A stretch of DNA of 64,000 nt from Chlamydiota bacterium. GTDB taxonomy: Bacteria > Auribacterota > Tritonobacteria > UBA1439. The notes beneath the pieces were generated by a model that made no database searches, was not told the origin of the DNA, and saw only the letters and a list, made by a program, of their open reading frames with translations. The DNA is taken from the NCBI GenBank assembly GCA_012729785.1, contig JAAYCL010000027.1:39194-103193 (forward strand), written 5' to 3'. Positions 54,270-64,000 of the stretch are shown here, in pieces; positions within the stretch are counted from its first letter, which is position 1; each line of letters opens with the position of its first letter. The translations under genes were made by a program, and so were the position numbers.

Positions 54270-55460
54270 TTACAGCCCGAAGCGGCCGAACGCCTCCCGA
54301 TAGCGCCCCAGCGCCGCGTCCCATGAGTAGTCCCGCTCCGCGTAACGTCTCCCCCCCGCGGCGAGGGCCTCGCGCAACCCCGGGCGTTCGAGGAGCAGGT
54401 GCACGCACTCCTCGAACTCGTAGTAGTCGCGGAAGGCGAGGCCGCCGTTGGAGCGGGCGCAGTGGCCCTCCGTCACGGCGCAGCGGGCGTTCACGATCCC
54501 CGCCGTCCCGGCGAGCCACGCCTCCATCAGCACGATGGAGAGGCTCTCGTTCACCGAGGGCTGGCAGAGGGCGAGGCAGGCGGCGTAGCCGTCGTGCTTG
54601 AGCTCCTCGTCGACGTACCCGAGATCCAGGATGCCGCCGGCGCTCTCGGGCGGGATCCGCACCTCGCCGGTGCCGAGGAGGGCGAGGGAGAGCGGCTGCG
54701 CGGGGTTATTCTTTTTGAAGACGCGCACGTACTCCACGAGGAGCGGGGTGTTCTTCCCCTCCTCGCGCCGGCCCGCGTAGAGGAGGAACGGGGTCGTGAG
54801 GCCGAACCTCTTGCGGAACCGCTCCGGGCGGTAGCGCGGGCGCGCCTCGAACCCCATCCCCGCGACCGCGGCGCGCGCGTCCTCGGTCTCGAAGAGGCGC
54901 CGGGCGAGCTCGCGTTCGGGGGGGCTGTTGAAGAGGATTCCGCGCACGCGTGCGAACATCTCGCGGAATATCCCCAAACGCGCGTACGGCTCGTCGTGGA
55001 GGCACGGGATCAGGAGCGACTTCTCGGGCGCGACGGCGCTCCCCGCCCAGGTGGTGCCGAACAGGTAGGGGAGGAAGATGAAGCAGTCGAACCGGTCCCG
55101 GTTGCCGCCGATGAAGTCGTAGAGCGGGGCGCTGTGGACGCTCCCCCTGATCCAGCACTCCTCCTCGCCGGGCGACACCGCCGCCCCGCGCGAGATGCGT
55201 TCCTGGATCGAGGCGAACTCCGCGGCCCGGTCGCGCGCGTCCACGGGGAAGCGGCGGACGGTTACGCCTCCGACCGTCTCCGTCCCGGGGCGGTAGTGGT
55301 TGGCCCAGGTGAAATGGTCGCGCGCGCAGGTGGTGAGGACGGTGACCTCGTCCCCGGACGCCGCGAGCCGCTCGGCGACGCCCTGGGCGAGCATCTCGGC
55401 GCCGCCGGCCGAGTGCACGCCGTAGCGTGGAACCACGAACGCGATTGTGCGCGCGGGCAT
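54270..55460 (-). CDS. GT4-family glycosyltransferase
   Basis: A 396-aa GT-B enzyme, more distant from the pair above. It starts MPARTIAFVVPRYGVHSAGGAEMLAQ, a typical mannosyl/rhamnosyltransferase-like start. The sugar loop is LYAGRREEGKNTPLLVEYV and the active-site motif is PSVNESLSIVLMEAW. The start may alternatively be three codons earlier (55469). Palindromic hairpins lie just upstream (55477-55588). Confidence 0.9.
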   Translation of the reverse strand: MPARTIAFVVPRYGVHSAGGAEMLAQGVAERLAASGDEVTVLTTCARDHFTWANHYRPGTETVGGVTVRRFPVDARDRAAEFASIQERISRGAAVSPGEEECWIRGSVHSAPLYDFIGGNRDRFDCFIFLPYLFGTTWAGSAVAPEKSLLIPCLHDEPYARLGIFREMFARVRGILFNSPPERELARRLFETEDARAAVAGMGFEARPRYRPERFRKRFGLTTPFLLYAGRREEGKNTPLLVEYVRVFKKNNPAQPLSLALLGTGEVRIPPESAGGILDLGYVDEELKHDGYAACLALCQPSVNESLSIVLMEAWLAGTAGIVNARCAVTEGHCARSNGGLAFRDYYEFEECVHLLLERPGLREALAAGGRRYAERDYSWDAALGRYREAFGRFGL

Positions 55461-55476
55461 GAGGGCCATTCCACCC

Positions 55477-55588
55477 GGGGGCACACGTACGGGTGCCCCG
55501 GGTATCACCGTGGGGTGCGCCCCGCTCGGACGCCCCTGATAGCTTTGAAAACCATTTCCCCCAGGGCACACTTACGTGTGCCCTGGGG
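55477..55588. repeat. Two related hairpins with a shared core
   Basis: Hairpin A (about 55474-55502) has arms CCCGGGGGCAC and GTGCCCCGGG. Hairpin B is perfect: CCCCAGGGCACAC (55559-55571), loop TTAC, GTGTGCCCTGGGG (55576-55588). Both contain the same core, GGGCACAC-[GT]TACG-GTGCCC. They lie between a glycosyltransferase start and the stop of the gene at 55647, with no T-run. Repeats of one element or a regulatory pair are possible. Confidence 0.6.
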
Positions 55589-55646
55589 CTGTGGAGAACT
55601 CCATAACAGTTTCATGGGGAATATGTTATATAATTCCAGTTCGGGC

Positions 55647-56069
55647 TTATTCGCCTCCGCTCTTCAGTTTCGCGAGCTCGGCGTCCACTTTGCGGTTCAG
55701 ACTGACGATGGCGTTCACCACCTGGCAGTTGAACTCCTTCTGCTGGGAGAAGAGGCGGAAGGTGTAGAACTTCAGGAGCTTCCAGATCGCCTTCTTGAGC
55801 AGGACCGCCGGGGCGCCGAGGATCCCCCCCTTGGAGTAGATCGGGAAGTCGCCGATGTCCAAATCCCAGGTCTGCTGGATGACCTTCAACGAATACTCGA
55901 GGAAGTCCGCCTCGCTCTTCACCCCGCTCAGCTCCAGCGCCGCGACGCGCGAGAGGTCGTACCGGTCGTAGACCCCGGCCTCCTTCTTGCGGGCGACGCG
56001 GTCCTCGATCTCGCGCTGTATCGCCGCCACGTCCACCCCGTCGGCGCCGATCTGGAACATGCCTGTCAT
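55647..56069 (-). CDS. Conserved-looking small protein of unknown function
   Basis: A 140-aa protein starting MTGMFQIGADGVD. A mixed helical body (IQREIEDRVARKKEAG, YDLSRVAALELSG) ends in a heptad-like helix (NAIVSLNRKVDAELAKLKSG), suggesting oligomerisation. GGGAGGTGACAG precedes ATG 56069. It sits inside the glycan-export cluster, where similar short helical proteins occur next to glycosyltransferases, so a scaffolding role is possible. No family assigned. Confidence 0.6.
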   Translation of the reverse strand: MTGMFQIGADGVDVAAIQREIEDRVARKKEAGVYDRYDLSRVAALELSGVKSEADFLEYSLKVIQQTWDLDIGDFPIYSKGGILGAPAVLLKKAIWKLLKFYTFRLFSQQKEFNCQVVNAIVSLNRKVDAELAKLKSGGE

Positions 56070-56128
56070 GCTGTCACCTCCCGGGCACGAACAACCCTCC
56101 GTCGCGGAGGAACCCCATCCGTTGTGCG

Positions 56129-56611
56129 TCAAGGGGCGCTCTCGCCCTCGTCGTCCGGCACGCGGACGGTCGCCGTGCCCGTTACGTAACCGGTCCGCGT
56201 GCCGTCCGCCCTGAAGGTCGGCGCGGTCGTAAAGTCGATCTCCAACGTGCCGTCCCGGCGCGGCGTGAAGAGGAGCTCCTTGAACATATACATATCGATA
56301 TCGATTCCGCCGCGCCGTGCGCTCTCCGCGACATCCGAGAGGGTCAGCAGGTCGACCTCCTCGCAGTAGGTCATCAGCTCCTCGTAGTCCCTCGGCCACC
56401 TTTCGTTGTCCTCGTGGAACGAACGGCTCACCTCCGAGAGGAGGATGCGGGCCCCCGCGCGCCGCGCCTCGTCCTCGCCGAGCGGCCCGAAGGCGGCCGC
56501 ACATCCAGACGAGGCGCACAGGGCGCACGCCAGGAGGAGGGCGCCGGGATGCGCGAGGCGCCCCGCCCCGTGCCGGACGCGCCCGCAGGATGCGGAGGCC
56601 GGCGATCTCAT
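56129..56611 (-). CDS. Small lipoprotein-like protein in the ABC-export operon
   Basis: A 160-aa protein with a signal sequence (residues ~15-36, ALLLACALCASSGC) ending in a Cys that could be lipidated. The mature part has one acidic helix region (RSFHEDNERWPRDYEELMTYC) and a beta-strand end (TGYVTGTATVRV). ATG overlaps the wzt stop by 4 bases. It has the pilin-like 'WPRDYEEL' pattern of bacterial secreted proteins but no known family. Confidence 0.65.
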   Translation of the reverse strand: MRSPASASCGRVRHGAGRLAHPGALLLACALCASSGCAAAFGPLGEDEARRAGARILLSEVSRSFHEDNERWPRDYEELMTYCEEVDLLTLSDVAESARRGGIDIDMYMFKELLFTPRRDGTLEIDFTTAPTFRADGTRTGYVTGTATVRVPDDEGESAP

Positions 56612-57786
56612 ATCCGCTCCCACCGGCAGGGGATGTCCGCCACCCCCTCGGCCTTGCGGGGAGAGTCGACCCAGAGGCTGAACCGGTTGTCGAGCCGGTG
56701 GTAACTCGTCTTGTGGTCGCGGGTGTGGAGGGAGAAGGAGAAGTAGTATCTCCCCCGGAGGAGCGGCAGGGAGGGGAAGGAGAGGCGCAGCGTTCCCTCG
56801 CCCTCGATCGCGTCGATCGGGAACGGGTCGATAAGCGTGTTGCTCCCGATGCAGAGCGTCCCGTCGCCCTTGGTCACGGCGAAGCCGAAGACCGGGTCCT
56901 CGATCCGCTTCCCGGCGCGCCAGTCGAGCTCCACGACGAGCGGCTCCCCGCTCAGGATGCGCTCGACCGCCCCGCCCTTCCCGTCCGTGAACCGGACGGC
57001 GGAGATGACCGCCTCCTTCGTGCCCCACTCCCGCACGACCACCGCCCCCGCCTTCTGGAAGCCGAGGCTCTTGTACTGGTCCACCACCTGTCCCGGCTCG
57101 CCGACCCGGACGATCCTCCCCGCGTCGAGGAGGAGGACCGAGTCGCTCACCTCGGTGATGGTGTCGAGGTCGTGCGAGACGATGAGCATTGTCTTCCCCG
57201 CGCGCTTGAACTGCGCGATCTTCTCGATGCACTTCTTCCTGAACGTCTCATCCCCCACCGCCATCACCTCGTCGATGAGGAGGATGTCGGGATTCACCTC
57301 GACGGCGACGGCGAAGCCGAGGCGGACGTACATCCCGGAGGAGTAGTGCTTCACCGGGATGTCGATGAACTGCTCGAGCTCCGCGAAGCGCACGATCGCG
57401 TCGAACCGCTCGGCGATCTCCCTCCTCGTCAAGCCGAGGATCGAGCCGTTCAGGCGGATGTTCTCCGCGCCGGTGAGGTCGGGGTGGAACCCCGCGCCGA
57501 GCTCCAGCAGCGAGGAGACGCGCCCGCGCACCTCGACCGTCCCCTCGGTGGGGCGCATCGTGCGGGCGAGGATGCCGAGGAGGGTGCTCTTCCCGGCGCC
57601 GTTGGCGCCGATGATGCCGATCGTCGAGCCCGCCTCGGCGGCGAAACTGATCCCCTTCAGCGCCCAGAACTCCTCCCGCCCCTTCTGGCCGCGCAGGAGA
57701 GACATGGCGGACGCCTTGAGCGTGTTCCGCCCGGCGTGCTTGAGGGTGAACCGCTTCCCGACGCCGCTGACCTCGATGGATTTCAT
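56608..57786 (-). CDS. wzt: Polysaccharide ABC transporter ATP-binding protein with C-terminal substrate domain
   Basis: A 392-aa ATPase. Walker A GANGAGKST (60-68), the signature YSSGM (148-152), Walker B ILLIDEV (168-174) and His205 are in place. After the ATPase, residues ~250-392 form a beta-sandwich (EPLVVELDWRAG ... LRLSFPSLPLLRGRYYFSF) like the Wzt C-terminal domain that recognises the end-capped O-polysaccharide. Start 57786 has GAGG-type signal. It works with the permease at 57909-58694. Confidence 0.92.
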   Translation of the reverse strand: MKSIEVSGVGKRFTLKHAGRNTLKASAMSLLRGQKGREEFWALKGISFAAEAGSTIGIIGANGAGKSTLLGILARTMRPTEGTVEVRGRVSSLLELGAGFHPDLTGAENIRLNGSILGLTRREIAERFDAIVRFAELEQFIDIPVKHYSSGMYVRLGFAVAVEVNPDILLIDEVMAVGDETFRKKCIEKIAQFKRAGKTMLIVSHDLDTITEVSDSVLLLDAGRIVRVGEPGQVVDQYKSLGFQKAGAVVVREWGTKEAVISAVRFTDGKGGAVERILSGEPLVVELDWRAGKRIEDPVFGFAVTKGDGTLCIGSNTLIDPFPIDAIEGEGTLRLSFPSLPLLRGRYYFSFSLHTRDHKTSYHRLDNRFSLWVDSPRKAEGVADIPCRWERI

Positions 57787-57908
57787 GATCTGATCCTCGG
57801 TGCCGCGGATCTTCACGGATCAACGCCGGCCCTTCGGCTGATCGCCGGAGATCCGTGTCGATCCGCGGCGAAACGAACGGCACTCCGCGGCAAGGCGTAT
57901 AGTCCCGG

Positions 57909-58694
57909 TCAAAGCTCGTCGGCGAAGTCGGGCGCGTACCTCCCGAAGACCCGGACCCCCGCCGCGAGGACGAGCAGCGAAACGACGACCGCGGCGGCGG
58001 CCGCCGGCGCCCCCGGCCACGGCCCGCCGACGATGACCGCCCGGTACAGCGTGATGAGGCCCGCCATCGGGTTCAGCCCGTAGAGGGCGAGCAGCCAGCG
58101 CGGCACCAGGTCGTTTTCCGCGATGAACTCGTACGAGTAGATGACCGGCGACATGAAGAACCAGGCCATCAGGAGCACCCCGACGAGGTGCTCCGTGTCG
58201 CGGAAGTAGACGCTCGAGCAGGAGACGAGGAAGGCCAGGCCCAGGCAGAAGACGAGCTGGAGCGCGACGACGAGCGGAAGGAGGGCGAGCCGCGGCCCCC
58301 AGGCGAGCCGCCCCGCGAGCAGGGCGAAGACGAACAGGACGAAAAGGGAGAGGAGATAGTTCACGAGGTTCGCGAGGACCGTGGAGAGCGGCAGGATGGC
58401 CCGGGGGAAGTAGATCTTCTTCACCAGGTTCGGGTGCCCCGCCACCGCGCTGATCGAGTCGTTGCAGCACATCGTGAGAAACTGCCAGGCGAGGATGCCG
58501 GCGAGGAGGTCGGGGAGCGGCATCGGGAACTTCAGGAACCTGATGAAGATCCAGTAGACCAGCATCATGAAGAGGGGGTTGAGGAGCGTCCAGAGGAAGC
58601 CGAGGGTCGAGCCCTGGTAGCGGATCTTCAGGTTGCGGGCGACGAGCGTCGCCAGCATCTCCCGCTTGCCGATGATGTCGGTGAAAAGCCCCAT
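57909..58694 (-). CDS. wzm: Polysaccharide ABC transporter permease
   Basis: A 261-aa ABC-2 type permease with six membrane helices. RNLKIRYQGSTLGFLWTLLNPL at the N-terminus, the AWFFMSPVIYSYEFI segment and the YGLNPMAGLITLYR end are typical of Wzm/TagG. With Wzt it moves undecaprenyl-linked polysaccharide to the periplasm. Between it and wzt lies a 122-base gap with imperfect inverted repeats (CACGGATC ... GATCCGTG). Confidence 0.93.
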   Translation of the reverse strand: MGLFTDIIGKREMLATLVARNLKIRYQGSTLGFLWTLLNPLFMMLVYWIFIRFLKFPMPLPDLLAGILAWQFLTMCCNDSISAVAGHPNLVKKIYFPRAILPLSTVLANLVNYLLSLFVLFVFALLAGRLAWGPRLALLPLVVALQLVFCLGLAFLVSCSSVYFRDTEHLVGVLLMAWFFMSPVIYSYEFIAENDLVPRWLLALYGLNPMAGLITLYRAVIVGGPWPGAPAAAAAVVVSLLVLAAGVRVFGRYAPDFADEL

Positions 58695-58760: not shown

Positions 58761-59057
58761 CTACTCCCAGACGAACTTCTCCCGGGTGCCGGGCTTCGCC
58801 GCGGCGGCGCCCCGCGTTCCCCCGCGGAGGCTCCGCCGCGCGGACTCCTCGAGCCACGCGTCGATGACCGACTTCTTGAAGCGGATGGTCGTCCCGATGC
58901 GGCTCGCGGGGATGTTGCCGCGCTTGACGTGCCGGTAGACCACCTGCTTGTGCAGGTGCAGGTAGTCGGCGACCTGGTCGATCGTCATCACCTCGGGGAA
59001 GCGCGCGGTTTCCGCCGCGGCTTCCGCGGGTGCGGGGTTCTTCGCAATGCCGGCCAT
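58761..59057 (-). CDS. Excisionase/MerR-like helix-turn-helix DNA-binding protein
   Basis: A 98-aa protein. Residues ~21-70 are a winged HTH of the excisionase (HTH_17) type: MTIDQVADYLHLHKQVVYRHVKRGNIPASRIGTTIRF. A basic tail follows. Its ATG lies just inside the aldolase stop region (aldolase ends at 59060), so the two genes are tightly coupled. HTH proteins of this family occur in several BMC operons and may act as the local regulator. Mobile-element excisionase is the alternative. Confidence 0.75.
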   Translation of the reverse strand: MAGIAKNPAPAEAAAETARFPEVMTIDQVADYLHLHKQVVYRHVKRGNIPASRIGTTIRFKKSVIDAWLEESARRSLRGGTRGAAAAKPGTREKFVWE

Positions 59058-59059
59058 CG

Positions 59060-59827
59060 TCAGAGTTTCTCCCGTAGCGTCCGGTACAGTTCGGCGGAGA
59101 GGGCGCTTACCAGCCCGTGTGCGGTGTGCGCCGCCCCGCCGCTCGAGGCGCACAGGCCGCAGCTGTTGCACGGATAGACCTTGCTCTTGAGCCCGAGCTT
59201 CTCCCGGAGGGCGAGCAGCTTGTCGATCTCCTCCCGCGGCAGGGGCTTGACGGGGCCGAGCTGGCGCGCGGCGGCGCTCACCTGGGCGCTGTGCTCGACC
59301 TTCTCCAGCCGGTCGTAGGCGGTGAAGACGGTGTCGCCGACGGTGATCGTGCCGTGCCGCTCGATGATGAGGGCGTCGCAGTCGCCGATGAGCTCCGCGA
59401 TCGCGCGGGGCCCCTCATCGGTGCAGGGGGTCGCGTAGGATGCGGTGGGGATGGAGCCGAAGATCATCACGATCTCCGGGAGCACGCACTGCGGGAGCTT
59501 CTGCCCCGCGAGGGAGAAGGCGATGGTGACGGGGGGATGGGCGTGCACGACGGCGCCGATGTCGGGGCGCTGCCGGTACGCCTCGAGGTGCAGGTACAGC
59601 TCGCCGGTCGGCTTCTTGTCCCCCTGCAGCTTCTTCCCCCCCATATCCGTCACGATAAGGTCGCGCGGGGAGAGGAACCCCTTGTTGATGCCGCTGGGGG
59701 TGCTCAGGAGGCGGCCGGAGCCGAGGCGGACGCTCACGTTGCCGTCGCTCCCGGAGATGAAGCCCCGGGCGTACATGCGGCGGCAGACCTCGACGATATC
59801 CTGGCGGTATTCGCGTTCCGATTTCAT
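59060..59827 (-). CDS. fucA: Class II aldolase (fuculose-phosphate type), BMC-associated
   Basis: A 255-aa class II aldolase. The zinc ligands H95, H97 and H158 and the catalytic-type E76 keep the spacing of E. coli FucA (E73, H92, H94, H155). It would cleave fuculose- or rhamnulose-1-phosphate to lactaldehyde and DHAP. Residues 204-255 form an extension absent in FucA: a Cys motif (C220, C223, C226) and a final amphipathic-looking helix HGLVSALSAELYRTLREKL, a candidate encapsulation peptide. It sits between BMC shell and HTH genes. Confidence 0.85.
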   Translation of the reverse strand: MKSEREYRQDIVEVCRRMYARGFISGSDGNVSVRLGSGRLLSTPSGINKGFLSPRDLIVTDMGGKKLQGDKKPTGELYLHLEAYRQRPDIGAVVHAHPPVTIAFSLAGQKLPQCVLPEIVMIFGSIPTASYATPCTDEGPRAIAELIGDCDALIIERHGTITVGDTVFTAYDRLEKVEHSAQVSAAARQLGPVKPLPREEIDKLLALREKLGLKSKVYPCNSCGLCASSGGAAHTAHGLVSALSAELYRTLREKL

Positions 59828-59874
59828 CGGCGGTTCCGGATCCCGTCCCCCCGCCGCGCCCGGGGGCCGCGGCG

Positions 59875-60423
59875 TCAGAGGATGAAGGCGTTCAGGTCCA
59901 GGTGGGGGTTCGGGATCACCACGCGGCGGACGAGCGCCCCCATCTCCTTGATCCGGTCGATGCCGGCCTGGACGGCCGCCTCGACGTCCGCCCAGGCCCC
60001 CGTGAGCACGACGAACGATTTTCCCCCGAGCCCGTTGCCGACGCGTATGAGGACGAGCTCGATCGCCGTCTCCTTCGCGGCGGCGTCCGCGGCGACGATG
60101 CAGGCGGGGGCGTTGAACGTCTCGATGACGCCCAGCGCCCCGAGGGCGTGGACCGGCGTGGCCGCGATGAGCGCCGGGACGACCTGCGCGTGCACGTTCG
60201 GCAGCAGCAGCGTGCCGGTGACCGCGCCGCCGCCCGCCTCGAGGCCCGCGTCGAGGGACCGCTGCACCGCCTCGACGTCCCCCGTGACCAGCACGAGGTA
60301 CTTGCCGGGACAGATGCCGCGCGAGTCCACCACCGAGACCTCGGCCCTCTTCGCCATCGCGTCCGTGGCGAGGATCCCCGAGGCGATGCTGTTGAACTCG
60401 ATCAGTCCGATTGCCGGTTCCAT
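59875..60423 (-). CDS. pduT: BMC-T (tandem-domain) shell protein, PduT-like with Fe-S pore cysteine
   Basis: A 182-aa protein made of two BMC domains: MEPAIGLIEFNSIASGILATDAMAK and ALGVIETFNAPACIVAADAAAKETA. The pore loop has ICPGK with Cys38, the position and motif of the [4Fe-4S] ligand of PduT. It would form a trimer carrying an iron-sulfur cluster across the shell. Next to a PduS-like gene, so an electron path is likely. Confidence 0.9.
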   Translation of the reverse strand: MEPAIGLIEFNSIASGILATDAMAKRAEVSVVDSRGICPGKYLVLVTGDVEAVQRSLDAGLEAGGGAVTGTLLLPNVHAQVVPALIAATPVHALGALGVIETFNAPACIVAADAAAKETAIELVLIRVGNGLGGKSFVVLTGAWADVEAAVQAGIDRIKEMGALVRRVVIPNPHLDLNAFIL

Positions 60424-60475
60424 ACCACCCTTGCGGTCGGCCGCGGCGCGGATGCGCCCCGCGGCGGCCTTGTGC

Positions 60476-61804
60476 TCACGCCGCGGCGATGACCACGGCG
60501 TCCTTGATCTCTTTCACCACGCCGGCGATGCTCGCGTGGTGCCGCGCCCCCAGCGCCCCCTCGGGGATCTCCGCGACGACCTGCCCCTTCCGCACGCGCT
60601 GCCCCACCTTCACGCACGGCACCGCCGCCGCGCCGACGTTCTGTTTCAGGGGGATCGACACGCGCGAGGGGGCGAGGCGTTTCGGGCTGAACGGCACCCT
60701 CACGTTGTACCTGCCGAGGCCGAGGCGGGCGACGAGGCGGCCGGTGGCGATGCGGGTGGTCTCCCGCGCCGGCCGGGGCGTCGGGGCGGGGGCCTTCCCC
60801 CCCGCCGCCCACCCGAGCGCCTTCAGATTCCGCTTGATGTTGCCGTTGATGCGGGCGATCGGGAGGCCCATCGGGCAGATGTAGAGGCCGCAGAGCTCGC
60901 ACTCGCAGCACAGGTGCGCGGAGGTCGTGCCCGCGCCGGCCGGGAACGGGAGGCCGAAGAGGACCGAGCGCATGACCAGGTGCGGGTACAGCTCGTGCCC
61001 GAGCAGGTAGCGGGGGCAGATCATCGTGCAGAGGTCGCACTGGCAGCAAAACTGGCGCGTCACGTGCAGGCTCTTCGTGAACGGGACCGTCCGCCGGCGG
61101 ACCAGGAGGTGGTCGCGGGGAAGGACCACCACGGCGCCGGTCGTCTTGGTGAGCGGCTGCGAGGCGTCGTAGGAGAGCTTCCCCATCATCGGCCCCCCGA
61201 GCATCAGGGCGTACTCCTCGACCGTCGGCCCCCCCGCCGCGTCGATCAGCTCCCCCCAGGCGATCCCGATCGGCGCCTCGAAGGTGGCCGGCGCGCGGAC
61301 GGCCCCCGCGACCGTGACGTAGCGGGAGACGACCGGCCTCCCCTCCGCGGCGTCGGCGATGTTCTTGAACGTCTCGACGTTGCTGTTCGCCACGCCGACG
61401 TCGAGCGGGAGCCCGCCCGCGGGGATCACGCGGCCGGTCGTCTCGTAGACGATGACGAACTCGTCGCCGGCGGGGTAGGCGTTCTCGAGGAAGGCGAGGC
61501 GGATGCGGCTCTTCTTGCCGAGGGTTTTCCTGAAGGCGGCGACCGCGTCCCGGTACTTCTCCTTGAGCCCGACGATCCCCTCCCCGGCCCCGGTCGCCTC
61601 CATCACGAGCTCCATCCCCCGCACCACGCGCGCCGCCTCGCGCGCCATCAGGTACTGGTCGTTGTGGAGGAGCGGTTCGCACTCGGCGCCGTTGGCGATG
61701 ACGACGTCGACGCGGGCGTCGATCTTCTTCCAGGTGGGGAACCCGGCGCCCCCGGCGCCCACCACCCCGGCCTGCTTCACCTTGTCGATCAGCGTTGCGG
61801 TCAT
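60476..61804 (-). CDS. pduS: PduS-like flavo/Fe-S protein (RnfC family)
   Basis: A 442-aa RnfC-type oxidoreductase. Residues 17-24 are the GAGGAGFP nucleotide motif and NGAECEPLLHND follows. Two [4Fe-4S] sites are visible: C256-C259-C263 with C253/254, and C302-C305-C310 with C299/300. The C-terminal end is a lipoyl-like hammerhead (VKVGQRVRKGQVVAEIPEGALG). In Pdu systems PduS reduces cobalamin and transfers electrons via PduT. Here no B12 dehydratase is visible, so NADH oxidation is an alternative. ATG 61804 is preferred to GTG 61813. Confidence 0.9.
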   Translation of the reverse strand: MTATLIDKVKQAGVVGAGGAGFPTWKKIDARVDVVIANGAECEPLLHNDQYLMAREAARVVRGMELVMEATGAGEGIVGLKEKYRDAVAAFRKTLGKKSRIRLAFLENAYPAGDEFVIVYETTGRVIPAGGLPLDVGVANSNVETFKNIADAAEGRPVVSRYVTVAGAVRAPATFEAPIGIAWGELIDAAGGPTVEEYALMLGGPMMGKLSYDASQPLTKTTGAVVVLPRDHLLVRRRTVPFTKSLHVTRQFCCQCDLCTMICPRYLLGHELYPHLVMRSVLFGLPFPAGAGTTSAHLCCECELCGLYICPMGLPIARINGNIKRNLKALGWAAGGKAPAPTPRPARETTRIATGRLVARLGLGRYNVRVPFSPKRLAPSRVSIPLKQNVGAAAVPCVKVGQRVRKGQVVAEIPEGALGARHHASIAGVVKEIKDAVVIAAA

Positions 61805-61920
61805 CTCTCCCACTCAGGCCGCGCGATCCGGGTGCGCCGCCGACCGGCGCGGTTCCGCCCTGGCCGGGCCGGGGGTCCGCTATATGCGCGTGTCCGCGCC
61901 GATCCGCGGCCCCCCGCGTC

Positions 61921-63351
61921 TCAGACGATCCGGAAGTAGTCCACGAGCGTGCAGCGCCGCACCCGTGTGAAGTCCTTCGCGGAGGTGAGCCCCTCGCCGG
62001 TGGGGCTCGCGATCGTGAACGAGGTGTACCCCTCGCCGCCGAGGCCGAGGCCGCAGCCGTTGGAGCCGTTCTTGACGAAGATCGAGCAGTTGACGAGGCG
62101 CGCCATCTTCGACAGCTTCTCGATGTTGCGGGAGAACATCGACGCGGTGTGGCGGTAGCCGTGCTCCATCTCGAGGGCGAGGTCGATCGCCTCGTCCACG
62201 TGCCTGGCGCGCGTCATCGGGAAGACCGGCATCAGCTGCTCGGACCAGAGCAGCGGGTGGTCCCGCTCGACGTCCACCAGCACCAGGCGCGTCTCGGCGG
62301 GGGCGCTGATGCCGAGCTCCTTCAGGATGACCGCGGCGTCCTTGCCGACCCACTGCTTGTTCACCACGCTCTCGTGCGGCGGGGCGTTGCGCTTCGAGAT
62401 GACGAGGTTCGTCAGGCGCTCGATGTCGCGCCCGGTCACCTCGTGCGCCCCGTGCGCCTTCATCTCCGCCTTCAGCCGGTCCGCGATCGACTCGACGGCG
62501 ATGAGCTCCTTCTCGTCCACGCAGATGATGTTGTTGTCGAGGGAGGCGCCCGCGACGATATCCTTGCCGGCCTTGGCGATGTCGGCGGTCTCGTCCACGA
62601 CCACCGGGGGGTTCCCGGGGCCGGCGCAGATCGCCTTCTTGCCGCTGTTCATCGCGGCCTTGACCACCCCGCCGCCGCCCGTCACCACCACGAGCCGCAC
62701 CTTCGGGTGCTTCATCATCTCGCCCGCCGTCTCCTGCGTCGGCTCGCCGATGCAGCAGAGCAGGTTGCGCGGGCCTCCGGCCGCGGCGATCGCCTTGTTG
62801 AGGAGCCGCACGGTGAAGGCGGAGGTGCCCTTGGCGGTCGGGTGGGGATTGAAGACGACGGAGTTGCCGCCGGCGATCATCCCGATCCCGTTGCAGATGA
62901 TCGTCTCGGAGGGGTTCGTGCACGGGGTGATGGAGCCGATGACCCCGTACGGGGCGCGCTCGACGAGGGTGAGGCCGTGGTCGCCGGTCCAGGCGATCGG
63001 GCGGAGGTCCTCGGTCCCCGGGGTGAGCCGGGCCACGCAGAGGTTCTTCTTGATCTTGTCCTCGTAGCGGCCCAGTTTCGTCTCGTCCACCGCCATCCGG
63101 GCGAGCGTCTGGGCGTTCTCCTCGGCGGTGCGGCGGAGCACGGCGATGATCTCGCGGCGCATGTCGAGCGACTGGGCCTCGAGCTCGCGCTGGGACAGCT
63201 CGGCGGCCTTGAGGGCGGAGTCGACGTCGGGGAAGACGCCGTCGCCGGGGGAGACGCCCGCCGCCGCGGCCTTCTCGACCGCCCCTTCTTCGGCGAGGCG
63301 CCTGATGACGTTGTCGACGATCGCGGCGATCTGCGCTTCGGTGAGGTTCAT
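61921..63351 (-). CDS. pduP: CoA-acylating aldehyde dehydrogenase (PduP/EutE-like)
   Basis: A 476-aa ALDH with Cys277 (NNIICVDEKE) and the TPCTNPSETIICNGIGM, FNPHPTAK and GGPGNPP-type segments of the BMC family. It oxidises aldehyde to acyl-CoA with NAD+. The N-terminal 23 residues (MNLTEAQIAAIVDNVIRRLAEEG) form an amphipathic helix and are a good encapsulation peptide, followed by an Ala/Gly linker. It lies next to the EutN gene (38-base gap). Confidence 0.93.
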   Translation of the reverse strand: MNLTEAQIAAIVDNVIRRLAEEGAVEKAAAAGVSPGDGVFPDVDSALKAAELSQRELEAQSLDMRREIIAVLRRTAEENAQTLARMAVDETKLGRYEDKIKKNLCVARLTPGTEDLRPIAWTGDHGLTLVERAPYGVIGSITPCTNPSETIICNGIGMIAGGNSVVFNPHPTAKGTSAFTVRLLNKAIAAAGGPRNLLCCIGEPTQETAGEMMKHPKVRLVVVTGGGGVVKAAMNSGKKAICAGPGNPPVVVDETADIAKAGKDIVAGASLDNNIICVDEKELIAVESIADRLKAEMKAHGAHEVTGRDIERLTNLVISKRNAPPHESVVNKQWVGKDAAVILKELGISAPAETRLVLVDVERDHPLLWSEQLMPVFPMTRARHVDEAIDLALEMEHGYRHTASMFSRNIEKLSKMARLVNCSIFVKNGSNGCGLGLGGEGYTSFTIASPTGEGLTSAKDFTRVRRCTLVDYFRIV

Positions 63352-63389
63352 AGGTCGCTCCGTCTAGTGCGCCCGGACGCGGCGCGGGT

Positions 63390-63707
63390 TCATCGCTTCG
63401 TCGGCGCGCCGTCCGCCTCGGCCTTCCGGTACTGCAGCGTGCCGTCGAGGTCCCACGAGTCGACGATGCCGAGGATCGTCGCGTCCGCGGGCTTTCCCTC
63501 CGTGGCCGCCGTGTAGCGGGCGGAGGAGCCCGAGACGTAGAGCACCACCTCGCCCACGCCGGCGCCGACCGAGTCGGCGGCCACGACGAAGACGCCCGTC
63601 GGGGCGCCCCGGAGGTCGAGCCGCTCGACGAGGAAGAACTTGAGCCCGCCGAGCTTCTCGTCTTTCTGCGTGGAGACGAGCGTACCCACCACTTTGCCGA
63701 GGAGCAT
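63390..63707 (-). CDS. eutN: BMC-P pentameric vertex protein (EutN/CcmL family)
   Basis: A 105-aa protein starting MLLGKVVGTLVSTQKDEKLGGLKFFLVERLD, the standard BMC-P N-terminus, followed by DSVGAGVGEVVLYVSGSSAR and ATILGIVDSWDL. It caps the vertices of the icosahedral shell. It lies between BMC-H and the aldehyde dehydrogenase. Confidence 0.94.
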   Translation of the reverse strand: MLLGKVVGTLVSTQKDEKLGGLKFFLVERLDLRGAPTGVFVVAADSVGAGVGEVVLYVSGSSARYTAATEGKPADATILGIVDSWDLDGTLQYRKAEADGAPTKR

Positions 63708-63747
63708 TGTGGCCTCCCTGCGAGGGTTCAGGGCCCGGGAAACGGGG

Positions 63748-63778
63748 AGGGGCGCCGCGGAGGCCGCGGCCGGCCCCT
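63748..63778 (-). promoter_or_regulatory. GC-rich hairpin between BMC-H and BMC-P genes
   Basis: Arms AGGGGC (63748-63753) and GCCCCT (63773-63778) enclose CCGCGG-AGG-CCGCGG, giving a strong stem-loop in the mRNA. There is no T-run, so it is more likely an RNA stability or processing element that tunes shell protein ratio than a terminator. Confidence 0.45.
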
Positions 63779-63803
63779 CGTCCGGGGATCCCGGGCCCGC
63801 CGG

Positions 63804-64000
63804 TCAGTCCTTGGCCGCGGAACGGCCGAGCGGCAGGACCGCGTCCACGTTCACGTGCGGCCGCGGGATGATGTGCACGGAGACGAGCTCGCCCACCTTC
63901 TCGGCCCCCCGCGCCCCCGCCTCGGTCGCCGCGCGCACCGCCGCCACGTCGCCGCGCACGATCGCCGTCACGTAGCCGCCGCCGATCTTCTCGTAGCTCA
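63804..64000 (-). CDS. BMC-H hexameric shell protein, C-terminal part
   Basis: The frame runs from the right window edge to a TGA at 63804. The visible 64 residues include [23 protein letters not shown] and [20 protein letters not shown], a classical single-domain BMC-H (PduA/CcmK type). The start is outside the window. It indicates the BMC operon continues to the right. Confidence 0.93.

What the first reader, a model, noticed from the sequence alone, without database searches (positions are those of the whole stretch)
58761..64000. Aldolase-type bacterial microcompartment with a PduS-PduT electron route and a coupled HTH regulator
Seen: BMC-H, BMC-P, aldehyde dehydrogenase with encapsulation helix, PduS-like and PduT-like proteins (Cys38 pore), a fuculose-type aldolase and a HTH protein in one run. 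Known: fuculose aldolase marks BMCs for fucose or rhamnose; PduS/PduT mark B12-linked diol BMCs. Inference: this locus combines an aldolase front end with a Pdu-like electron pathway, so NAD+ may be recycled through the shell. No dehydratase is visible, but the operon is cut at 64000.
Basis: partly seen in the sequence, partly recalled or inferred. Interest (0 to 1): 0.7.

Follow-up and report, generated by a model that had tools for sequence, protein, structure and literature searches.

The report
Aldolase microcompartment with electron-conducting pore
This operon encodes a protein-shelled bacterial organelle that appears to split a phosphorylated sugar into an aldehyde and oxidise it, passing the freed electrons out through an iron-sulfur pore; the parts are known kinds, but here the electron-export parts occur without the B12 or radical enzymes they are usually tied to.

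Summary
The gene list is confirmed. The window ends at a contig end: the assembly broke inside a BMC-H gene that exists in two near-identical copies. In related genomes the complete operon is BMC-T, BMC-H, BMC-P, CoA-acylating aldehyde dehydrogenase, PduS, PduT-like trimer, class II aldolase and HTH, with no dehydratase or glycyl-radical enzyme. Three more BMC-P genes sit in a satellite locus. The same block occurs in at least eight more distant loci, so it is a widespread, little-described metabolosome layout with shell proteins closest to the Haliangium (HO) model.

Across 73 loci, every PduS-bearing locus has Cys at the PduT pore (20 of 20), against 2 of 53 without PduS. This supports a PduS-PduT electron route, although few of the changes are independent.

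The fucose/rhamnose reading is not supported: the genome has no FGGY kinase and no PduL. It does have MtnP and MtnA, no MtnB, and this aldolase is its only PF00596 protein. I therefore suggest, as inference, that the compartment cleaves 5-deoxyribulose-1-phosphate or methylthioribulose-1-phosphate (a compartmentalised DHAP shunt). With no B12 or radical enzyme in the operon, what PduS/PduT do becomes directly testable.

The parts
63804..64000 (-). BMC-H shell protein, C-terminal half; the gene is cut by the contig end
   Evidence: PF00936; N-half on contigs C28/C29; closest natural solved structure HO-5815, 1.3e-44
63390..63707 (-). BMC-P (EutN/CcmL) vertex protein
   Evidence: PF03319 7.5e-29
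61921..63351 (-). CoA-acylating aldehyde dehydrogenase (PduP/EutE type); catalytic Cys277, acylating His401
   Evidence: PRK15398 659.6 bits; Cys277 and His401 align with C269 and H387 of Cphy1178 and are invariant
60476..61813 (-). PduS/RnfC-like NADH-FMN-[4Fe-4S] oxidoreductase
   Evidence: Four-domain architecture; ferredoxin-type Cys invariant; RnfC structures are the best PDB matches
59875..60423 (-). PduT-like tandem BMC-T with pore Cys38 (CPGKY)
   Evidence: PF00936 twice; 3nwg, 3pac and PduT 3n79 best in PDB; Cys38 invariant and tied to PduS
59060..59827 (-). Class II aldolase (PF00596) with a Cys-rich linker and a C-terminal helix
   Evidence: PF00596 1.6e-47; Glu76, His95, His97, His158 invariant; model shows a detached helix 236-254
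58761..59057 (-). Small HTH_17 (excisionase/MerR-like) protein, probable operon regulator
   Evidence: HTH_17 9.9e-16; 2-bp gap to aldolase; follows the aldolase in several families of the phylum

Best explanation
The operon builds a catabolic microcompartment. A ketose-1-phosphate enters the shell. The class II aldolase cleaves it to DHAP and a short aldehyde. The CoA-acylating AldDH oxidises the trapped aldehyde to acyl-CoA and makes NADH. PduS oxidises that NADH and passes the electrons to a [4Fe-4S] cluster held by Cys38 in the PduT-like pore and so to the cytosol, in place of the alcohol dehydrogenase that recycles NAD+ in other metabolosomes. Acyl-CoA is handled outside by Pta and AckA. 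Shown here: gene content, conserved catalytic residues, operon conservation, the PduS/Cys38 association, and absence of FGGY kinase, PduL and GRE. Inferred: encapsulation, direction of flux, electron export and the substrate. Most likely substrate: 5-deoxyribulose-1-phosphate and/or 5-methylthioribulose-1-phosphate made by MtnP and MtnA (a compartmentalised DHAP shunt). I put this substrate at about one in three, and the general mechanism at about two in three.
For: Conserved operon in the family, class and more distant families and in 8 loci outside the close relatives. Aldolase metal/catalytic residues and AldDH Cys/His conserved. No alcohol dehydrogenase in the operon. PduS/Cys38: 20/20 loci with PduS are Cys, 2/53 without (rows); 25/25 against 2/53 when satellite pairs are counted. 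RpiR-SIS (phosphosugar) regulators sit upstream of BMC-T in three relatives. For the substrate: MtnP and MtnA present; a single PF00596 protein, hence no MtnB; no FGGY kinase; MtnA in 11/11 BMC-bearing against 16/32 BMC-lacking genomes of the phylum; MtnP 3-6 kb from BMC-T in the 4 assessable genomes of the family; the MtnP variant of the shunt needs no kinase (PMC10986504), and cleavage to acetaldehyde plus DHAP is established for DrdA (PMC6079011).
Against: Aldolase sequence and fold do not choose between FucA, DrdA and YgbL. MtnP/MtnA are not in the operon; MtnP proximity may be inherited synteny; the MtnA association is confounded by phylogeny. Only 3 independent pairs lie on well-supported branches for PduS/Cys38, too few for significance. 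Two Bacteroidetes loci have Cys38 without PduS nearby. The PduT-like protein scores 112 bits against a 250 cut-off for the PduT equivalog.
Confidence: 0.62

Rival explanations
1. Fucose/rhamnose compartment (PVM-like): the aldolase cleaves fuculose- or rhamnulose-1-phosphate to DHAP and lactaldehyde, which the AldDH converts to lactyl-CoA.
For: PF00596 aldolase with FucA-type catalytic residues; the PVM aldolase acts in L-fucose/L-rhamnose breakdown (PMC4207490).
Against: No FGGY kinase (fuculokinase or rhamnulokinase) in the genome, with a working control; no PduL; aldolase far below FucA cut-offs.
Confidence: 0.07
2. The aldolase acts on another ketose-1-phosphate (ribulose-1-P or xylulose-1-P giving glycolaldehyde, or an unknown sugar phosphate) made by a PfkB-type or other non-FGGY kinase; the rest of the mechanism is as in the best explanation.
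For: The family is promiscuous; similarity is equal to several specificities; the AldDH type accepts several short aldehydes (PMC4762007).
Against: No dedicated kinase or isomerase is in the operon in any relative; MtnP/MtnA already supply a substrate without a kinase.
Confidence: 0.3
3. PduS and PduT are relics of a Pdu ancestor or reduce cobalamin, with no electron export from this compartment.
For: PduS is a corrin reductase in Pdu compartments (PMC2982820); the 2014 taxonomy raises the relic idea (PMC4207490).
Against: No diol dehydratase hit (but no control genome rang); no GRE; pore Cys kept in every PduS-bearing locus and replaced by Q/H/S/E/T/N/G in almost all PduS-less loci; a second PduT-PduS pair is kept elsewhere in the genome.
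Confidence: 0.12
4. The pathway runs in the synthetic direction: electrons enter through PduT/PduS, AldDH reduces acyl-CoA to aldehyde, and the aldolase condenses it with DHAP.
For: Aldol condensation is strongly favoured (cleavage constants near 1e-4, PMC6079011).
Against: The PduT cluster potential of +99 mV in Pdu (PMC6325248) makes it an acceptor from NADH, not a donor; known aldolase metabolosomes are catabolic.
Confidence: 0.05

Closest known systems
HO metabolosome (Haliangium ochraceum type; model shell)
   Same: BMC-H closest to HO-5815 and a BMC-P closest to an HO pentamer in PDB; BMC-T close to HO-5816 and CcmP; same gene order in related loci; [quoted passage not shown]
   Different: HO-like loci without PduS carry a non-Cys residue in the T1-type pore, e.g. 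Thr in Hyalangium; here the pore has Cys and PduS is present, and the BMC-P triplet is in a satellite locus.
SPU-like loci (Latescibacteria; Axen 2014)
   Same: Class II aldolase, AldDH and PduS with no dehydratase (PMC4207490).
   Different: SPU-like loci also carry PduL, an RpiB-like protein and acetate kinase; none is in this operon and PduL is absent from the genome.
PVM metabolosome (fucose/rhamnose)
   Same: PF00596 aldolase, AldDH, several BMC-P.
   Different: PVM loci carry an AlcDH-like dehydrogenase, acetate kinase and a DeoR regulator (PMC4207490), none of which is in this operon; here PduS/PduT are present and the sugar kinases are missing.
GRM5 (Clostridium phytofermentans type)
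   Same: Class II aldolase with PduS and PduT in one locus (all 57 GRM5 loci have PduS/PduT, PMC6325248).
   Different: GRM5 needs a glycyl radical enzyme; none here.
PDU metabolosome
   Same: PduS, PduT-type Cys pore, PduP-type AldDH.
   Different: No B12 diol dehydratase, PduO or PduL in the operon.
DHAP shunt (MtnP/MtnA/Ald2 or DrdK/DrdI/DrdA)
   Same: MtnP and MtnA present; class II aldolase of the same superfamily.
   Different: Known versions have no shell; aldolase specificity here is untested.

Membership tests
PDU metabolosome | B12-dependent diol dehydratase | tested here: inconclusive
   No PF02286 match in the genome, but no control genome rang; none in the operon of any relative
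GRM metabolosome | Glycyl radical enzyme (PF02901) | tested here: not met
   No match in the genome; control rang in 3 genomes
PVM metabolosome | PF00596 class II aldolase | tested here: met
PVM metabolosome | Fucose/rhamnose feed-in through an FGGY kinase | tested here: not met
   No PF00370 in the genome
PVM metabolosome | AlcDH-like dehydrogenase, acetate kinase and DeoR regulator in the locus | tested here: not met
   Operon of relatives lacks them
SPU / SPU-like | RpiB-like isomerase and PduL in the locus | tested here: not met
   Neither in the operon; PduL absent from the genome
ACI type | Aldolase locus with hydroxyacid dehydrogenase; AldDH only in a satellite locus | tested here: not met
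   AldDH is in the main operon, no hydroxyacid dehydrogenase there
HO type | HO-like BMC-H, double-stacking BMC-T and BMC-P proteins | tested here: met
   PDB matches HO-5815, HO-5816 and HO BMC-P
HO type | Assignment by the published shell-protein HMM clades (Sutter 2021) | not testable with these tools
   Supplementary HMMs and data were not available
FRAG types | BMC-P triplet and shell genes dispersed over several loci | tested here: met
   BMC-H plus three BMC-P on C26, separate PduT-PduS pair on C37
FRAG types | Shell genes mostly remote from known enzymes | tested here: not met
   Main operon carries AldDH, PduS and aldolase
PduT | TIGR02526 equivalog cut-off 250.3 bits | tested here: not met
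   112.2 bits
PduT | Tandem BMC domains with pore Cys (C-P/S/A-G-K/R/S-Y/F) | tested here: met
   CPGKY, invariant Cys38
PduS | Complex1_51K, SLBB, Fer4_17 and RnfC_N domains with two tetracysteine motifs | tested here: met
L-fuculose-1-phosphate aldolase (FucA) | TIGR01086 cut-off 400 bits | tested here: not met
   79.3 bits
DHAP shunt | MTA phosphorylase (MtnP) and MTR-1-P isomerase (MtnA) | tested here: met
   TIGR01694 324 of 275 bits; TIGR00512 439 of 279 bits
DHAP shunt | Aldolase specific for 5-deoxyribulose-1-P / MTRu-1-P | not testable with these tools
   Needs enzyme assay; sequence and fold equidistant from DrdA, FucA and YgbL

The most novel reading that the evidence does not exclude
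A microcompartment form of the DHAP shunt: MtnP and MtnA turn 5'-deoxyadenosine and methylthioadenosine (by-products of SAM enzymes) into ketose-1-phosphates, which a shell-enclosed aldolase and AldDH convert to DHAP and acyl-CoA, with NADH re-oxidised through a PduS/[4Fe-4S] pore instead of an alcohol dehydrogenase.
Probability: 0.3. Interest if true: 0.82.

Novelty: new variant of a known kind. Interest (0 to 1): 0.52.

Why it matters
The role of PduS and PduT outside B12 compartments is stated to be an open question (PMC6325248), because in other systems it is mixed with cobalamin recycling or radical-enzyme activation. Here neither partner enzyme is seen and no alcohol dehydrogenase is in the operon, so NADH re-oxidation with electron export is the simplest role left. 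The near-perfect link between PduS and the pore Cys gives a one-residue prediction that can be tested in purified shell proteins. If the substrate idea is right, a group of orphan aldolase compartments would gain a function: salvage of SAM by-products.

Tried and rejected
Considered the operon as an ordinary Pdu or GRM locus cut at the contig end: rejected by the complete operons of relatives. Considered fucose/rhamnose: rejected on missing FGGY kinases. Tried to tell aldolase specificity from family models, PDB sequences and a predicted fold: not discriminating. Tested encapsulation helices by hydrophobic moment against shuffles: not significant in the window's proteins. Searched for a paper linking microcompartments with 5-deoxyribose or the DHAP shunt: none in the held library. 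MtnA presence across the phylum was associated with the BMC (Fisher p = 0.003), but the families are not independent, so it is only supportive.

Full report
WHAT IS THERE. The window is G000:C27:39194-103193, in a 2.59-Mb, 45-contig genome (96.6% complete, 1.1% contamination), and its last base is the contig end. Reading the minus strand from 64000 downwards: BMC-H (C-terminal half), BMC-P, AldDH, PduS, PduT-like BMC-T, class II aldolase, HTH_17. Gaps are 96, 38, 107, 52, 47 and 2 bp; a Wzm-like ABC-2 permease follows after 66 bp on the same strand.

WHY IT STOPS AT 64000. Two contigs (C28 start, C29 end) carry identical N-terminal halves of a BMC-H gene and two (C26 end, C27 end) carry nearly identical C-terminal halves. 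C28 brings a 211-aa BMC-T upstream; C29 brings a response regulator; C26 continues with three BMC-P genes next to prolyl-tRNA synthetase. In the same family G003 has a contiguous main operon BMC-T, BMC-H, BMC-P, AldDH, PduS, PduT, aldolase, HTH; G001 and G004 show the same genes split over contigs; G003 and G004 have a separate satellite BMC-H followed by BMC-P genes. So C28 most likely joins C27, and C29 joins C26. That is inference from synteny, not an assembled join.

CONSERVATION. Of 43 other genomes sampled from the phylum, 11 carry BMC genes. Main loci that could be read have the same order: G003 (family f1), G006 (f2; my gene caller missed its PduT, but BMC domains lie at that place), G021, G031, G033 and the split G028. 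G019 has the genes on two contigs. In a scan of named genomes, 10 of the 80 best AldDH loci carry both PduS and a class II aldolase; 8 of these (Nitrospinaceae, Nitrospinota, candidate division B38, Effluviviaceae, Deltaproteobacteria and unnamed MAGs) have BMC-T or BMC-H, BMC-H, BMC-P, AldDH, PduS, PduT, BMC-P, BMC-P, aldolase in that order. PduL (PF06130) precedes the block in two loci (L078, L080) and RpiR-SIS regulators precede it in three (L083, L088, L101).

ENZYMES. AldDH Cys277 and His401 align with Cys269 and His387 of Cphy1178, where mutation abolishes activity and the His marks the CoA-acylating class. Aldolase Glu76, His95, His97 and His158 are invariant. The aldolase has a C-terminal extension, modelled as a linker and a detached helix (236-254, low confidence), comparable to the C-terminal encapsulation peptide described for ACI aldolases (PMC8217296). 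By sequence and by fold it is equally close to YgbL, FucA and DrdA.

ELECTRON ROUTE. PduS has the four published domains and its ferredoxin-type cysteines are invariant. In Pdu, PduS binds FMN and two Fe-S clusters, oxidises NADH and interacts with PduT, whose cluster sits at +99 mV; what these proteins do in B12-free compartments is called an open question (PMC6325248). I asked whether the pore Cys follows PduS. Among 73 loci with both scored, PduS-bearing loci have Cys in 20 of 20; PduS-less loci have Q, H, S, E, T, N or G in 51 of 53 (Fisher p = 5e-16 if rows were independent). Both traits change 8 times on the AldDH tree and 5 times on a PduT tree built without the pore segment; but only 3 independent contrasts lie on well-supported branches, none going the other way, which is too few for significance. 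The exceptions are two related Bacteroidetes loci (L081, L097) with Cys and no PduS nearby. The genome also carries a second PduT-PduS pair on C37, with Cys, conserved in the family.

SUBSTRATE. The genome has no FGGY kinase, no PduL and no GRE; the diol-dehydratase search gave nothing but had no positive control. It has Pta, AckA, MtnP and MtnA, and the compartment aldolase is its only PF00596 protein, so there is no MtnB. MtnP plus MtnA would make 5-deoxyribulose-1-P and methylthioribulose-1-P without any kinase, and cleavage of these by class II aldolases to DHAP plus acetaldehyde or methylthioacetaldehyde is the known DHAP shunt (PMC6079011, PMC10986504). MtnA is present in all 11 BMC-bearing and 16 of 32 BMC-lacking genomes of the phylum, and over cut-off in 12 of 13 genomes reached through named loci with an aldolase BMC. 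MtnP lies 3-6 kb from BMC-T in the four family genomes where this can be seen. Cleavage is thermodynamically poor (about 1e-4, PMC6079011), so confinement with an AldDH that removes the aldehyde makes sense. This remains inference. Other ketose-1-phosphates are not excluded.

FILING. It works like an aldolase metabolosome. The shell is HO-like. It fails tested defining features of GRM, PVM (kinase, locus enzymes), SPU/SPU-like (RpiB, PduL in locus) and ACI. The closest printed description is the SPU-like class II aldolase/PduS locus of 2014 (PMC4207490). It may coincide with one of the uncharacterised types in the 2021 catalogue, whose supplementary data I could not read. Hence 'new variant of a known kind'.

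Noticed in passing
window 63804-64000; L014 end, L012 start, L013 end: The two BMC-H copies (main and satellite loci) are nearly identical in DNA in this genome (1 mismatch in about 218 bp of the C-half region) and 98.8% identical in G003, yet about 79-88% between genomes and 79-87% between copies in G001 and G004. This suggests gene conversion in some lineages.
   Followed up: partly
L015:7376-9272 (G000:C37): A second PduT-PduS pair, 45-46% identical to the operon pair, next to a phosphomannomutase-like gene; conserved in the family (L045, L046, L047, L050). Its role is unexplained.
   Followed up: partly
L081:6356, L097:6450: Two Bacteroidetes loci have the pore Cys but no PduS within the fetched flanks: the only clear exceptions to the PduS/Cys38 rule.
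   Followed up: no
window 54270-58694; L048, L053, L057, L061: The BMC operon is followed by O-antigen-type polysaccharide export genes (Wzm/Wzt) and glycosyltransferases in the family; glycosyltransferase-like genes lie nearby in another family too.
   Followed up: no
L049:7067-8398, L051:10012-11385: A sodium:alanine symporter gene stands directly upstream of the satellite BMC-H/BMC-P cluster in two genomes (PF01235 for L049; similar protein in L051).
   Followed up: no
window 59060-59200 (aldolase C-terminus): The aldolase linker carries a conserved CxxCGxC motif (CNSCGLC) in many relatives, also outside the sampled phylum, reduced in one family and lost in L078. Possible metal or Fe-S site.
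   Followed up: no
L013:3623-4549: A response regulator with a C-terminal HTH_28 domain sits directly upstream of one BMC-H copy, probably that of the satellite locus.
   Followed up: no
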